From positions 97,916 through 161,915 of the IMG/VR virus record IMGVR_UViG_3300023184_008416: a DNA stretch of 64,000 nt. One strand, 5' to 3'. This DNA comes from a virus. A program made the position numbers and the translations under genes. Numbering within the stretch: position 1 is the stretch's first letter; every line of letters begins with the position of its first letter. Positions 1-29,196 of the stretch are shown one piece after another. The notes beneath the pieces are model-generated. The model was not told the origin of the DNA. It made no database searches and worked only from the letters and a program-made list of their open reading frames with translations.

Positions 1-1602
1 AACCTCAGCCTCTGTCATCCCCCTGTTTGGGTCGGCTTTAAACTTAAATCGATTGAAGCGATTGTCAAAATCAGTCCACCAAAATCGGGGCGTCGTCTCC
101 CCAATTTTCTGAAATCCCGAAGATTCATAACCCACACCTGTTCCAATCCGCCTATCGACATAAGTCATCAATCCTGCCTTCGAATTTGCTTTTACAAATT
201 GCATGGCAACTTTGGTCAATTTCCTTAACCCCCCTCTCACGTGAGTGTTAACCCTGGTACAAAATCGGGCAACCTCATAATAATCTTCATGTGTCTTGTG
301 AAAGGGCTTCCTGATGCTTAACGCACAAACCAACTCTTTTTCAAGATATAAACCCCAAGCAACTATCGAGGCTGTATCTCCATCGACATGATTTGCATTA
401 AAAAATTTTCTACGTGATTCTACGTCTAATTTTCCCACCCTTAACTGCCGCGCACCGTACTTATTAGGGGTCATTTTTAAACGGTGTAAAATCATGCTCT
501 TGACAATGTCGGACTTGTCTCTCCAATCATCTTCAAAAACATGCATTAACTGAATCCCAACTTCTCCCGCCATCTTCAACTTGTTTTCATGGTAGGCTGA
601 AGACTTGTGCAGATCAGAGTGCCAGTACAATCCATTATATTCGATCGCAAAGTTGTGATCAGGTACCAACACGTCCAACTCAACTCCCTTAAGAACAGAC
701 CGATCATTTCTTTTTAACGTCACTCCCAAAGAAACTATGTAGTCAGCGATTTCCTGCTGTGCGGCAGATCCTGTGGGCTGGCATACGTAACACCGACCAC
801 GTTGCAATCTCCTAAGCGAATCGTGAAATTCAGAACCACAAACATCACACCTCACCTTGATAACAGGCGAAGCATCATTAATGTAATGCTCTGTCCCCCC
901 AATCACCCTTAGGTTTGATCCGATCTCTATCCTACTCTTGATTTCATCGACCTTCAACCTCTTGATCTGATCCAATCTCTTCCTAAGAGATTCTTTCTTC
1001 AGTGACAACGAAACCTTGGTCGCCATGTTCCGAATCCTGACATCAGTATCCTTGTTTAATCCTACAGACCAAGGCACCCGAGAGCCGGTAGAAAATTCTT
1101 CTTTCAATTTATTTGATAACCCCAACAACCTGTCATCTGTATATTTCGTGTGTCCCCTGGACCATGCAACCCTGTCGCCAGATTTGAACTGTTGCGACAC
1201 GGTCAAAGATCTCTTCTGGGAAGCTTTCATCAGTCTGTCGTCTGTCTGCTTCGACAACCCCTTGGCCCAATTAACAACAATCCCCGTTTCCAAAGACTCT
1301 TTCAAAGTATTGTTTCGCTTCTCAACTACTCGTTGAGCCTCACCAGAATCGAGATAACTGTAAATGCTGGCGTTGTGACCGATGATGAAGTCAGAATAAC
1401 CCACCTTCCACCCCACCCACCGTGGAATCTGTCCACACCCACACCTACACAGTCTGCACCCATTGATTTGAATCCACGCACTCTCAACTGTAATCTGATG
1501 TACCTCCCCAAGATGTACCTCAAACGACGTCAATCTTTTGGATTCAAAGTCACAAAAAGGACACCTAACAGGCTCTAACACCCTTCCTTTAATCGCACCC
1601 AT
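1..1602 (-). CDS. Vsr-like homing endonuclease, partial (runs off left edge)
   Basis: The frame is open from an ATG at 1602 down to base 1 (534 codons) with no stop, so the C-terminus lies outside the window. Residues 14-35 form a C2H2 zinc finger (CPFC...H....H). A CxCGCG module follows near residues 52-57. Three spaced repeats of the pattern W-x-x-G-x-x-K-x-[TD]-D lie at about 110-210, like the NUMOD elements of phage endonucleases. A CxxC pair precedes a Vsr/EDxHD-type nuclease core near 305-330 (ELDVLVPD, then IEYNGLYWHSD), the family of I-Bth0305I. The remaining C-terminal part looks like the accessory domain usual in that family. It stands divergently to the tail tube gene and probably targets a nearby virion gene. 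The family is clear; target and activity are inferred. Confidence 0.85.
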   Translation of the reverse strand, partial: MGAIKGRVLEPVRCPFCDFESKRLTSFEVHLGEVHQITVESAWIQINGCRLCRCGCGQIPRWVGWKVGYSDFIIGHNASIYSYLDSGEAQRVVEKRNNTLKESLETGIVVNWAKGLSKQTDDRLMKASQKRSLTVSQQFKSGDRVAWSRGHTKYTDDRLLGLSNKLKEEFSTGSRVPWSVGLNKDTDVRIRNMATKVSLSLKKESLRKRLDQIKRLKVDEIKSRIEIGSNLRVIGGTEHYINDASPVIKVRCDVCGSEFHDSLRRLQRGRCYVCQPTGSAAQQEIADYIVSLGVTLKRNDRSVLKGVELDVLVPDHNFAIEYNGLYWHSDLHKSSAYHENKLKMAGEVGIQLMHVFEDDWRDKSDIVKSMILHRLKMTPNKYGARQLRVGKLDVESRRKFFNANHVDGDTASIVAWGLYLEKELVCALSIRKPFHKTHEDYYEVARFCTRVNTHVRGGLRKLTKVAMQFVKANSKAGLMTYVDRRIGTGVGYESSGFQKIGETTPRFWWTDFDNRFNRFKFKADPNRGMTEAEV

Positions 1603-1675
1603 CAATACTAATGTAATCCCCTTACCTCAAATTGTATCCAATTTTTGGTTTACAGGTTGCTCAATTTTCTCATGT

Positions 1676-2200: not shown

Positions 2201-2267
2201 CATCAATATTCGACAACTGCACAATTGTCGATTGTACAAGTCATTGGGTCTGTGGTACTTTTTAACC

Positions 2268-3059
2268 ATGGACCCAAAGATTTTTGTGTGCCCTGAGTGT
2301 AAAGGGTATGAGGCGACAAAGTTAGATTCATTGCGTATTCATTATCAAAAGAAACACGGCTTACCTGCCCGTAAACTCTATGCAGACTTGTTTTTGCAAG
2401 GAGGCAAGGAACCACTGTGTGCTTGTGGTTGTGGTGAGCCGACCCGATTTTTGACCTTACAAAAGGGTTTTTCTAAGTATCTTCTGGGACATGCATCCCG
2501 TGTTACCAATAATTGGGGTCACAATAAAATGGCGCAGGAGAAGAGCCTAAAGAAGCGCCGCGATGAAGGGTTGTGGAGTCGGAACCCGTGGAACAAAGGT
2601 AAGACAAAAGAAAGTGATCCAGAGTTTGCTGAAATTGCAGAGAAAGCCTATGCTTCTCAAGCAGAAAAATCTCGTAAATCAAAAATGATGAAAGAACAAT
2701 GGTCAGACGGGACGATAATTCCTTTGTCTGGTTCTGCACACCCTCAGTGGAGAGGGGGTACATCTGCGTTGCAACCTTTGGTTCGTTCTCATTTACACAC
2801 CAGATGGACTTATCCTAAGTTAAGAGAGAGTGGGTTTAAGTGTGTTCAATGTGGTTTGACAAGCGATCTTGAGGTCCATCACAATGGAGAGAGGTTTGCT
2901 TCAATACTTCATCGGGCGATTGAGACCCTTGGCGAGCCTGGAGAAGATTTTCACAAGAAGTTTATCATTGCCGAGTGGGTCGCCGATTACCATGTCGAGC
3001 ACGAGGTTCCGGGAGTTGTCCTGTGTCAGTCGTGTCACGATATTGAGCATGTCCAGTAA
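2268..3059 (+). CDS. HNH homing endonuclease with zinc-finger and NUMOD-like modules
   Basis: 263 residues from the ATG at 2268; an in-frame TTG at 2232 is possible but has no ribosome site. An N-terminal C2H2-like finger (CPEC...H....H) is followed by a CACGCGEP module that matches the CRCGCG module of the endonuclease at 1-1602. A W-N-K-G-K-T-K-x-S-D NUMOD-like repeat lies at about 107-117. The C-terminal HNH nuclease has CVQCG, then LEVHHNG and CQSCHDIEH with metal-binding Cys and His. It is a free-standing gene between two virion genes and has less biased codons than the tail tube gene, which suggests mobility. Target unknown. Confidence 0.85.
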   Translation: MDPKIFVCPECKGYEATKLDSLRIHYQKKHGLPARKLYADLFLQGGKEPLCACGCGEPTRFLTLQKGFSKYLLGHASRVTNNWGHNKMAQEKSLKKRRDEGLWSRNPWNKGKTKESDPEFAEIAEKAYASQAEKSRKSKMMKEQWSDGTIIPLSGSAHPQWRGGTSALQPLVRSHLHTRWTYPKLRESGFKCVQCGLTSDLEVHHNGERFASILHRAIETLGEPGEDFHKKFIIAEWVADYHVEHEVPGVVLCQSCHDIEHVQ

Positions 3060-26038: not shown

Positions 26039-26833
26039 ATGTCAGAAATTACAGAATCTACAGGTCTTAACAAAGTCAACTTTGGAACCTATGGCAAACA
26101 CTTTCAAGAGTGTGTCATGGCGGGTCTGCTCACAGACAATAGATGGGCAGAGCAAATGATGGAAGTATTTGATACAGAATATTTTGAACTCAAATACCTT
26201 CGATTCTTGGCCGAGAAGTACTTTGCTTATTCTCGCAAATACAAGGTTTTTCCTACCTTACAACTTCTTGCAACAATTATTAGAGAGGATCTAAAGACGG
26301 GATCAGACGCTCTTTTGCGTGATCAGATCATCGATTATTTGACTCGAATCAGAGCCAATCCGATGACCAACGACATGCAATATGCCAAAGAAAAATCTCT
26401 TGATTTTTGCAAGAAACAAGCCTTGAAGCATGCGTTGGAAACTGCAGTGGATCAGATGCAGGCAGAAAAATACGAGTCAATCGTTGAGACCATTCGTCGA
26501 GCAGTCTCTGTTGGAACAGTCCCCGCAGTTGGACATGATTTTTTGAATGACATGGAGGCACGGTTCACTCGACAAAAAAGAGACACCATTCCAACTGGAT
26601 TGGCTGAACTTGACAAGAAAGAAATTTTTAACGGTGGTTCCGGTAAAGGAGAGCTGTACTGTGTGATTGGTTCAACCGGGGCAGGAAAGTGTAGTGTACG
26701 TGATACTTATATTCACGTCAGATACACAACAATCAAAATCAATGGAAAATCCTACAAGCCTTGGGACAAGATCAGAACCCAAAGAGGCGAAATTTTTGTA
26801 AGAGACATCGTCAAATCAGACGAGCTCCTGTAA
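26039..26833 (+). CDS. Replicative DNA helicase N-terminal part fused to a short N-intein
   Basis: 264 residues. The first 217 are the N-terminal and early ATPase part of a DnaB/gp41-like hexameric helicase, ending in the Walker A residues GSTGAGK. Then Cys218 starts a 47-residue intein N-fragment with the block A pattern CSVRDTYIHVR, which ends at a TAA. The rest of the intein and helicase is encoded at 27919-29196. Joining the exteins gives GSTGAGK-SHFLT, a complete P loop, and a 481-residue helicase of normal size. Thus the gene is split and needs protein trans-splicing to make active enzyme. The Cys1, the C-terminal HN and the following Ser are all present. Confidence 0.9.
   Translation: MSEITESTGLNKVNFGTYGKHFQECVMAGLLTDNRWAEQMMEVFDTEYFELKYLRFLAEKYFAYSRKYKVFPTLQLLATIIREDLKTGSDALLRDQIIDYLTRIRANPMTNDMQYAKEKSLDFCKKQALKHALETAVDQMQAEKYESIVETIRRAVSVGTVPAVGHDFLNDMEARFTRQKRDTIPTGLAELDKKEIFNGGSGKGELYCVIGSTGAGKCSVRDTYIHVRYTTIKINGKSYKPWDKIRTQRGEIFVRDIVKSDELL
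26690..26833 (+). other. Intein N-fragment (47 codons)
   Basis: Starts with Cys codon 26690-26692 right after the Walker A Lys and holds only block A. It lacks block B, which lies in the C-terminal piece. The break is therefore much closer to the N-terminus than in canonical split inteins such as gp41-1 or Npu DnaE. Confidence 0.85.
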
Positions 26834-26876
26834 CAAATGTGTTTATTGTGATAGGACTTATGTTTCCCACAGCGGA

Positions 26877-27938
26877 TTGGTAAGTCATCTAAGAAAGAAG
26901 CATGGACAAACTTATCGAGATTACAGGACACAAAATGGAATTTTGACAAAACGTCAGCAAAATCCTGCAAAAAACACAGTTAGAGAGAAAATGAAACAAC
27001 GGCAGCAGGAATTATTTCAGCAAGGGCTCGCTGAAGGTTTATCTCCTATGAAGTGTTTAATTTGTGGTTTTGAGTCGATGTTTACGTTGATTAGTCATAT
27101 TTCTATGAAACATCAAATTACTACCGATGTCTATAGGGAAAAATTTGGTATTGAAAAAATACAACAAATTTTGCCATCGCAGAGACAAGTTATAAGATCA
27201 ATTGTAAAAGAAGCAATGAACAGGCCTGACGTCAAGGAGAGAGTTGCTTTGAAAAGGTCGTTTCCATCCGAGAAAAAGCATTGGCTTAATAAAGGTTTTA
27301 CAGATGATGAGGCATCGAAAAAAGTCTCTGAATTTCAAAGAAGCATGGCTCTTCGAGCCGATGAGGAAACAAGAGCAAAATTATCGCAAAAGTCTCGTGG
27401 TAAAAATAATCCAATGTCAATTGAGTCAATCGCAAAAAGACACGGAGTTTCCCACGAAGAAGCGCGGCTTCTTACTCCGGCATGTGGTAGGTCTGGAGAA
27501 TTACATCCAATGTGGGGGAAACGTCACACGCAAGAATCTTTGGAAAAGATTGCCTCATCTCGGCACCTCACAGATCCGACGTGGAGATCAAAACCAGAAA
27601 TTCAGCTTGAGGAATGGTGTAAGTCTGTGTTCGGTGAATCTCAGGTGAAGGCAAACACAAAGATTAGCAGGTGGAATATTGACATCCTCATTCAGGAAAA
27701 AAAGTTAATTGTTGAATTGTTTGGAGATTTTTGGCACATGAATCCTGACAAATTTTTGGAAACTGACGTCAATAAAATCACCAATAAGGTAGCAAAAGAA
27801 ATATGGCAGCACGATCTTAAAAAACTTGAATATCTGAAGACAAATGGTTACAATGTTTTAGTGGTGTGGGAACGTGACTGGAAGTTAAACCAGGAGCAGA
27901 CAAAGGAAAGAATAAAAGATGCTTACAATCGAGTTTGA
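26877..27938 (+). CDS. Vsr-like homing endonuclease located inside the split intein
   Basis: 353 residues if read from TTG 26877. A complete C2H2 finger (CVYCDRTY...H...H) is coded across this start: its Cys codons at 26838-26849 lie upstream, in the same frame, but no ATG, GTG or TTG precedes them before the stop at 26799. A second finger (CLICGFES...H....H) lies near 50-70. A NUMOD-like region follows, then a nuclease core SKPEIQLEEWCKSVFG, NIDILIQEKKLIVELFGDFWH and VLVVWERDW typical of Vsr/EDxHD endonucleases. The 3' end overlaps the downstream helicase gene by 20 bases. It probably spreads the intein or itself by cutting intein-free helicase genes. Confidence 0.85.
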   Translation: MVSHLRKKHGQTYRDYRTQNGILTKRQQNPAKNTVREKMKQRQQELFQQGLAEGLSPMKCLICGFESMFTLISHISMKHQITTDVYREKFGIEKIQQILPSQRQVIRSIVKEAMNRPDVKERVALKRSFPSEKKHWLNKGFTDDEASKKVSEFQRSMALRADEETRAKLSQKSRGKNNPMSIESIAKRHGVSHEEARLLTPACGRSGELHPMWGKRHTQESLEKIASSRHLTDPTWRSKPEIQLEEWCKSVFGESQVKANTKISRWNIDILIQEKKLIVELFGDFWHMNPDKFLETDVNKITNKVAKEIWQHDLKKLEYLKTNGYNVLVVWERDWKLNQEQTKERIKDAYNRV

Positions 27939-28401
27939 CAGTGTGGAAGAACAGATTAAAATCGGTGATTTGTTTGACCAAATTGGATTTGAACAAACAT
28001 CACGTCCCACCGACGATTCTGGTGACTCATTCATCAAGAACGATTGGTCAATTGAAGCGCTTTCACTGGATGGGTATTATCCTGTAGAAGGTTTTCGATG
28101 GACAAAACCGGAACGTAAGATGCAGATCGCTCACAGGAGCATCAACCCATTTATCTTGGAGGATCAAATTCCGACTCTCGACTGCTCACCAGAGCACCTG
28201 CTTTTAAAGAGGGTCTCTGAGACTGAGTTTCAATGGGTGGAAGCCAAGACGTTACTTGAAAATGATGTCATTGTTGGATCCTTTGGTTCTTTAAGAAAAG
28301 TTGTCTGTGCATTACCTCTCGATCAAGCTGATGAACGACTCTGTGATTTGCAGGTGTCAATTGCACACTCGTATATGACAAATGGTATCTTGTCTCATAA
28401 C
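27919..28401 (+). other. Intein C-fragment (161 codons)
   Basis: Carries blocks B, F and G and ends in His-Asn at 28396-28401, followed by a Ser codon. It is much longer than the 35-45 residue C-fragments of canonical split inteins because the break lies upstream of block B. Confidence 0.85.
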
Positions 28402-29196
28402 TCTCACTTTTTGACAATGATTGGGGCCAATGCCCTGCAGGACGGCCGCAATGTTTTGCATTACACCTTTGAATTATCTGAAACTTCTGTCGGAACCCGG
28501 TACGATTCCAACCTTTGTGATATAGATTCCAATGAGGTGATGGATCGTAAAGAAGAGGTCAAATCATCCTATGAGAAGATGAAGTTAGGTCGACTGTTCA
28601 TTAAAGAATACCCAACTAATTCTGCATCCATTTTTACCCTTAGAGCTCACATTGAACGTTTGGATTTGAAAGGATTCAAACCCGATATTATCATTATTGA
28701 CTATGCCGACATCATGAGATCAACACGCCAGTATGATTCTTTGAGACATGAGTTGAAATTGGTGTACGAAGAGTTACGTGCTATGGCAATGGAACTAGGA
28801 GTACCTGTTTGGACAGCGTCTCAATCAAACAAAGAAGGTGCCAATAGCGATGTTATTGATGTTACTAACATGAGCGAGGCATATGGCAAAGCGATGATTT
28901 GCGATGCTATCGTGACAATTTCTAGAAAGGCTCATGAGAAATCAACGGGATGGGGTCGATTATTTGTCGCTAAAAACCGTGCAGGCAGAGATGGATTAGT
29001 TTATCCAGTGCAGATTAACACGGCTCGGTCCAAGTTTACCATTGTGGGTAATGCGGGAAGCCCAGAACAAGTGTCTGCAGAAAATGACGCAGAAATGAAA
29101 AAAGCCTTACGAGATAAATGGAGAGAGTTACAAAGTGAAATGTCTTTTATTCCGTCAACAAAAGGCGAGTTACCTAGAACAGGAACAGATAGTTAA
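27919..29196 (+). CDS. Intein C-fragment fused to replicative DNA helicase C-terminal part
   Basis: 425 residues. The first 161 are the larger intein piece: KIGDLFDQIG, then block B TLDCSPEHLLL (about 86-96), block F DLQVSIAHSYMTNG and block G ILSHN, with Ser162 as the +1 extein residue. From Ser162 on, the protein is the DnaB-type ATPase core: GRNVLHYTFEL, Walker B IIIIDYADIM, WTASQSNKEG, and a C-terminal AKNRAGRDG loop. The ATG at 27919 overlaps the end of the endonuclease gene. After trans-splicing with the 26039 product it would give a full helicase that unwinds DNA at the fork. Confidence 0.92.
   Translation: MLTIEFDSVEEQIKIGDLFDQIGFEQTSRPTDDSGDSFIKNDWSIEALSLDGYYPVEGFRWTKPERKMQIAHRSINPFILEDQIPTLDCSPEHLLLKRVSETEFQWVEAKTLLENDVIVGSFGSLRKVVCALPLDQADERLCDLQVSIAHSYMTNGILSHNSHFLTMIGANALQDGRNVLHYTFELSETSVGTRYDSNLCDIDSNEVMDRKEEVKSSYEKMKLGRLFIKEYPTNSASIFTLRAHIERLDLKGFKPDIIIIDYADIMRSTRQYDSLRHELKLVYEELRAMAMELGVPVWTASQSNKEGANSDVIDVTNMSEAYGKAMICDAIVTISRKAHEKSTGWGRLFVAKNRAGRDGLVYPVQINTARSKFTIVGNAGSPEQVSAENDAEMKKALRDKWRELQSEMSFIPSTKGELPRTGTDS

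What the first reader, a model, noticed from the sequence alone, without database searches (positions are those of the whole stretch)
26690..28401. Atypically split intein in the replicative helicase, with a Vsr-like endonuclease gene between the halves
The helicase is cut exactly inside the Walker A motif: GSTGAGK | intein | SHFLT. The N-fragment (47 residues) carries only block A; blocks B, F and G are all in a 161-residue C-fragment. Canonical split inteins break between B and F. The gap holds a free-standing endonuclease gene, the arrangement known as a fractured gene. A break upstream of block B is rare (known in AceL-TerL-type inteins), and I know of no such break in a gp41/DnaB locus, though I could not search. 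It may give a new trans-splicing pair with a short N-tag.
Basis: partly seen in the sequence, partly recalled or inferred. Interest (0 to 1): 0.9.

Follow-up and report, generated by a model that had tools for sequence, protein, structure and literature searches.

The report
Split intein interrupting a phage helicase
A phage's essential DNA-unwinding enzyme is encoded as two separate proteins that almost certainly glue themselves together through a two-piece self-removing intein, and the same unusual early break recurs in at least 23 other environmental viral contigs, so it is a real inherited design and not a sequencing accident.

Summary
The DnaB/gp41-like helicase is cut inside Walker A (GSTGAGK|C...N|SHFLT). 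IntN (47 aa, block A) ends at a stop. IntC (161 aa, blocks B, F and G) starts at its own ATG, and a Vsr-like zinc-finger homing endonuclease ORF lies between. It is not unique: 23 other IMG/VR contigs carry both halves at the same site. IntN is 47 aa in every one of these except the most divergent (52 aa), followed by TAA or TGA, with the endonuclease in the +1 frame. Cys1, block B His, penultimate His, Asn and Ser+1 are invariant. Two viruses share an almost identical cassette inside diverged exteins, the footprint of recent homing. Six contigs have lost most of the endonuclease but stay split. AlphaFold models of two natural near-fusions put both pieces into a Hint fold (pLDDT 89, pTM 0.80 and 0.83), with VidaL, an atypically split intein, among the top hits. 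VidaL sits in UvsX with a 16-aa IntN. This family sits in the helicase and has a longer, conserved IntN. Most likely it is an active trans-splicing "fractured gene", a new atypically split family (variant of a known kind). Splicing itself is untested.

The parts
26039..26689 (+). N-extein of DnaB/gp41-like replicative helicase (217 aa), ends at Walker A lysine GSTGAGK
   Evidence: phrog_19 DnaB-like helicase E 2.8e-18; contiguous with C-extein in 79 of 80 closest homologues
26690..26830 (+). IntN, 47 aa, block A (Cys1 codon 26690-26692); stop TAA at 26831-26833
   Evidence: 47 aa in every homologue with a complete IntN except L114 (52 aa)
26738..26830 (+). Conserved IntN extension (about 31 aa, up to SDELL) absent from the 16-aa VidaL IntN; predicted beta-hairpin plus short helix
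   Evidence: alignment A7 (invariant Trp, near-invariant T-x-R-G), models; boundary approximate
26802..27938 (+). Homing endonuclease open frame (stop-to-stop; +1 frame relative to IntN); no ATG/GTG/TTG before zinc finger 1; first TTG at 26877
   Evidence: NUMOD3 and MTES_1575 Pfam matches
26838..26903 (+). Endonuclease zinc finger 1 (CVYC...HLRKKH)
   Evidence: residues read from sequence
27054..27113 (+). Endonuclease zinc finger 2 (CLICGFESMFTLISHISMKH); its C/C/H/H invariant in the family alignment
27597..27935 (+). Vsr-like (EDxHD-type) nuclease domain: E266, D294, H312, D338 of the open frame invariant in 6 homologues
   Evidence: profile vs Vsr 1cw0 E 1.6e-5
27903..27910 (+). Shine-Dalgarno-like AAGGAAAG upstream of C-ORF ATG
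   Evidence: AAAGGA/AGAGAG-like motif before the ATG in most homologues, including the HEN-less L086
27919..28401 (+). IntC, 161 aa, blocks B (His 28195-28197), F (His 28366-28368), G (His-Asn 28396-28401)
   Evidence: hhalign to VidaL IntC prob 98, E 1.3e-13
28402..29193 (+). C-extein of helicase (264 aa), Ser+1 = Walker A serine
   Evidence: DnaB_C E 1.3e-14; phrog_19 E 2.6e-46

Best explanation
This is a mobile fractured-gene cassette: an atypically split class-1 (Cys1, Ser+1) intein with a Vsr-like homing endonuclease gene between its halves, inserted between the Lys and Ser of Walker A in the phage's replicative helicase. The phage makes two precursors, N-extein-IntN and IntC-C-extein. 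They associate, IntN supplying Cys1, strand beta-2 and a conserved extension, and IntC the rest of the Hint fold. They trans-splice, which rebuilds GSTGAGKS and gives a 481-residue helicase; neither precursor alone has a complete P-loop. The endonuclease probably cuts the intein-free P-loop sequence in rival phages, so that repair copies the whole N-int/HEN/C-int block. Shown by sequence: anatomy, family-wide conservation of the split and catalytic residues, low dN/dS, homing footprint, HEN loss with the split kept. Predicted: the assembled Hint fold. Inferred: splicing, cleavage, and restoration of helicase activity.
For: Same site, same break and same gene order in 23 other contigs. IntN is 47 aa with TAA or TGA stops in all but L114. 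Cys1, block B His, penultimate His, Asn and Ser+1 are invariant. Both halves evolve under purifying selection (e.g. L003/L005 dN 0.17, dS 1.19 for IntN and dN 0.10, dS 1.27 for IntC). Only one DnaB_C helicase is found in the 161.9-kb record. L088 and L089: cassette 98-100% identical per 60-nt bin, N-extein bins mostly 78-93%, with a roughly 250-nt co-converted tract on the C-extein side. L038, L086, L131, L132 and L141 (and in part L130) lost most of the HEN but keep separate halves. Two AlphaFold models of natural read-through stretches: pLDDT 89.0 and 89.3, pTM 0.80 and 0.83; top PDB hits are inteins, VidaL rank 2 and 1.
Against: No splicing, expression or cleavage data. Block F His is Asn in L114 and the block B Thr position varies, so efficiency may vary. 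The models are read-throughs of relatives (L086, L141), not the window's own two chains, and no coordinates could be inspected for active-site geometry. The record may be incomplete, so a second intact helicase elsewhere is not excluded. The window's HEN has no usual start codon, so homing may be inactive in this phage.
Confidence: 0.88

Rival explanations
1. Decayed intein: a formerly contiguous intein-HEN was broken by a frameshift, it no longer splices, and the phage uses a host or another helicase.
For: The window's HEN has lost its usual start codon; L002 HEN is frameshifted; block positions vary in some members.
Against: The break is conserved over 23 other contigs with two different stop codons; catalytic residues are invariant and both halves show low dN/dS; the helicase exteins stay intact; no contiguous relative was found.
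Confidence: 0.06
2. A +1 frameshift at the IntN stop makes some IntN-HEN fusion, so the endonuclease is expressed only as an extension of the N-precursor.
For: The HEN frame is +1 to IntN in every locus that keeps it; the window and L114 lack ATG/GTG/TTG before zinc finger 1.
Against: Most relatives have an in-frame ATG shortly before zinc finger 1, within or just after the IntN end; no constant slippery motif at the stop; conserved frame follows from common ancestry.
Confidence: 0.05
3. The split is kept as a regulatory device, making helicase production depend on conditions or on the meeting of two precursors, rather than being only a selfish remnant. This adds to, and does not exclude, the best explanation.
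For: Six contigs stay split after losing most of the HEN; L141 is one stop codon away from a contiguous intein yet stays split.
Against: Persistence may only mean that splicing in trans is good enough and precise removal is rare; no condition-dependence is visible in sequence.
Confidence: 0.12

Closest known systems
VidaL split intein (PDB 6vgv, UvsX P-loop)
   Same: Atypical early split, phage recombination/replication ATPase, Walker A insertion, Hint fold; IntC profiles homologous (hhalign prob 98, E 1.3e-13); top fold hit; first residues align by eye (CLPKEAVVQVRL / CSVRDTYIHVRY)
   Different: Host gene is a UvsX/RecA-like recombinase (L120-L123), insertion GESG|SGKS; IntN 16 aa without the 31-aa extension; a contiguous relative exists at the VidaL site (L124) but none was found here
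AceL-TerL / GOS-TerL / Cat-TerL atypical split inteins
   Same: Naturally split upstream of block B, short IntN (25, 37, 30 aa; PMC11766414 table)
   Different: Host gene terminase; AceL and GOS reported split after helix alpha-1 (S2, PMC13014065); shorter IntN
PolB16 OarG split intein (8cpn/8cpo)
   Same: S1-type split after beta-2; strong fold match (TMt 0.77)
   Different: 15-aa IntN, Ser1 chemistry, DNA polymerase host (PMC10189870)
gp41-1 split intein (6qaz)
   Same: Phage gp41 helicase host (by name), best sequence-profile PDB hit (E 3.2e-9)
   Different: Canonical break between blocks B and F; insertion site elsewhere in the helicase (both from own knowledge)
Aeromonas phage PolB1 (Aes123) split intein with Vsr endonuclease
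   Same: Annotated VSR endonuclease at an intein-split DNA polymerase; the HEN finds it by tblastn (E 1e-10)
   Different: DNA polymerase host; Cys-less intein; only the C-terminal half of the HEN matches

Membership tests
Fractured-gene split intein (Dassa et al. 2009 type) | Host gene in two ORFs, each fused to one intein half | tested here: met
Fractured-gene split intein (Dassa et al. 2009 type) | Free-standing homing endonuclease gene between halves | tested here: met
   ORF 26802-27938; start codon unclear in the window
Fractured-gene split intein (Dassa et al. 2009 type) | Catalytic residues of class 1 intein kept | tested here: met
   Cys1, block B His, His-Asn, Ser+1 invariant
Fractured-gene split intein (Dassa et al. 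2009 type) | Trans-splicing of the two products | not testable with these tools
   needs expression
Canonical split intein (break between B and F) | IntN carries blocks A and B | tested here: not met
   Block B lies in IntC
Vsr-like (EDxHD) homing endonucleases | Vsr-like nuclease core with E, D, H, D residues | tested here: met
   Profile vs 1cw0 E 1.6e-5; vs I-Bth0305I 3r3p only E 0.19; residues invariant
Vsr-like (EDxHD) homing endonucleases | Cuts the intein-free allele | not testable with these tools
   L088/L089 footprint is indirect support
VidaL intein | Homologous IntC and S1-type split | tested here: met
   S1 placement rests on strand order and alignment, not on coordinates
VidaL intein | 16-aa IntN in UvsX | tested here: not met
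   47-aa IntN in a DnaB-like helicase
AceL-TerL type | Terminase host and 25-37 aa IntN | tested here: not met
   Helicase host, 47 aa IntN
AceL-TerL type | S2 split (after helix alpha-1) | tested here: inconclusive

The most novel reading that the evidence does not exclude
The 31-residue IntN extension is a new functional element of split inteins, for example an assembly clamp that pairs with the added N-terminal strand of IntC, and the split is kept by selection even after endonuclease loss because it controls when the phage's P-loop helicase becomes active.
Probability: 0.25. Interest if true: 0.75.

Novelty: new variant of a known kind. Interest (0 to 1): 0.58.

Why it matters
Only a handful of natural split inteins with an early break are characterised in the papers that could be read. 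This is a phylogenetically deep family of them in an essential replication gene, with intermediates (HEN present, decaying, gone; one or two stop codons from fusion), so the origin and persistence of split inteins becomes directly testable. It also offers many diverged IntN/IntC pairs for protein ligation, each with a P-loop junction.

Tried and rejected
Sequence error or random frameshift: rejected because the break is conserved in 23 other contigs with different stop codons. Stop-codon recoding: rejected because both TAA and TGA end IntN. Contiguous relatives: none among the viral hits; genome-contig scan with the IntC profile gave nothing; the wide IntN profile was too variable to scan with. 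Isolate phages: no homologous IntC in 50,697 phage records, only a weak terminase intein match in Vibrio phage VPALA. Single-sequence PDB searches found only gp41-1 at E 0.6-0.9; the profile was needed. Dassa 2009, Neugebauer 2017 and Burton 2020 are not held. Whether the intein named VidaL T4Lh-1 (recalled, not verified) comes from a helicase stayed unresolved.

Full report
What was checked. The window is part of a 161.9-kb virus record (G000). The N-ORF (26039-26833) ends its helicase part at GSTGAGK and continues as a 47-aa IntN to TAA. The C-ORF (27919-29196) starts with a 161-aa IntC ending SHN and continues SHFLT. Both exteins match one phage helicase profile at adjoining positions (phrog_19 163-366 and 369-588), and Pfam finds DnaB_C in the C-part. 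Seventy-nine of the 80 closest helicase homologues have no insertion there, so the empty site is well defined: Lys|Ser of Walker A.

It is a family. Scans of IMG/VR with IntC, IntN and HEN and the helicase brought in 23 other contigs that carry both halves at this same residue: L002, L003, L004, L005, L038, L086, L087, L088, L089, L093, L102, L103, L104, L105, L106, L107, L108, L109, L114, L130, L131, L132, L141. Further contigs are cut by their ends (L094, L095, L097, L111, L113). IntC identity to the window runs from about 26 to 59%. IntN is 47 residues in every complete case except L114 (52), with TAA in some and TGA in others; the 46 printed for L132 comes from a start coordinate one codon late. 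Where the HEN is kept its frame is +1 to IntN, and the C-ORF ATG usually overlaps the HEN's last 19-22 bases. Cys1, block B His, penultimate His, Asn and Ser+1 are invariant.

Selection and mobility. For pairs where dS is measurable, both intein halves show dN well below dS (L003/L005: IntN 0.17/1.19, IntC 0.10/1.27; L087/L088: 0.18/2.90 and 0.14/1.85); several dS values are saturated and were not used. L088 and L089 carry cassettes 98-100% identical per bin while N-extein bins are mostly 78-93% identical; identity stays at 97-100% for about 250 nt into the C-extein and then falls to 77-95%. That is the expected footprint of recent homing of IntN-HEN-IntC as one block. L003/L004 show the same direction weakly.

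HEN loss without re-fusion. L038, L086, L131, L132 and L141 have lost most of the HEN, L130 a large part, and L002's is frameshifted. All stay split. L086 keeps two in-frame TAA codons and L141 a single TGA between the halves. Persistence of the split therefore does not need a working HEN. Whether selection favours it or re-fusion is merely rare is open.

Fold. L086 and L141 allowed two natural read-through stretches to be modelled with unpaired N and C rows: pLDDT 89.0, pTM 0.80 and pLDDT 89.3, pTM 0.83, the stretch between the halves being the low-confidence part. The stop codons were read as a residue for modelling only; nothing suggests the phages do so. PDB searches return inteins: VidaL ranks 2 and 1 (TMt 0.76 both), PolB16 OarG TMt 0.77 in the first. 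Some of these alignments, VidaL's among them, are too short to span both halves, so they speak mainly for the C-fragment; the PolB16 alignment of 235 columns spans both. The strand order (IntN 11-21; IntC 77-87 or 79-89 followed by a helix) places the break in the turn between beta-2 and beta-3, as in VidaL and PolB16 (S1 in PMC13014065), with about 31 extra IntN residues predicted as a hairpin and short helix.

Nearest known. The IntC profile matches VidaL's IntC (hhalign prob 98, E 1.3e-13) and gp41-1 (E 3.2e-9). Contigs 98-99% identical to the solved VidaL show that VidaL interrupts a UvsX/RecA-like recombinase, GESG|...|SGKS, with a 16-aa IntN. Published natural atypical IntN fragments are 15-37 aa (PMC13014065; PMC11766414 lists GOS-TerL 37, AceL-TerL 25, Cat-TerL 30). 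The present family therefore extends the known range and host genes but not the kind.

The endonuclease. NUMOD3 and MTES_1575 matches (MTES_1575 is below its curated cut-off), two zinc fingers, and a Vsr-like core whose profile reaches Vsr at E 1.6e-5. In the window the frame holds no ATG, GTG or TTG before zinc finger 1, unlike most relatives; the position used as ATG in several of them reads ACG here. It may be weakly made or dying.

Limits. No expression data; literature access is partial; the collections hold contigs, not isolates, and no isolate phage searched carries this IntC.

Noticed in passing
L126 (G000:C1 about 62.4-63.7 kb, outside the window): A second, contiguous intein with an internal endonuclease-like region in a portal-like ORF of the same virus; C-junction reads SHN|T and no Cys is evident at the N-junction.
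   Followed up: partly
window 1-1605 (-) and 2232-3059 (+): Two further free-standing endonuclease-like genes with zinc-finger motifs, the first with a Vsr-like match.
   Followed up: no
L058 1-2000; L141 1-640: L058: UvsX/RecA-like gene broken by another split intein with a 14-aa IntN (CVSPETKLTVRKRQ) and Vsr-type HEN remnants, at a site other than VidaL's. L141 shows HEN- and IntC-like matches upstream of the helicase.
   Followed up: partly
L124 1827-3329: Contiguous 57%-identical relative of VidaL at the same UvsX P-loop site, a possible pre-split or re-fused state.
   Followed up: partly
L114 3766-5361: Most divergent member: 52-aa IntN, C-extein 39% identical, block F His replaced by Asn, and no usual HEN start before zinc finger 1.
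   Followed up: partly
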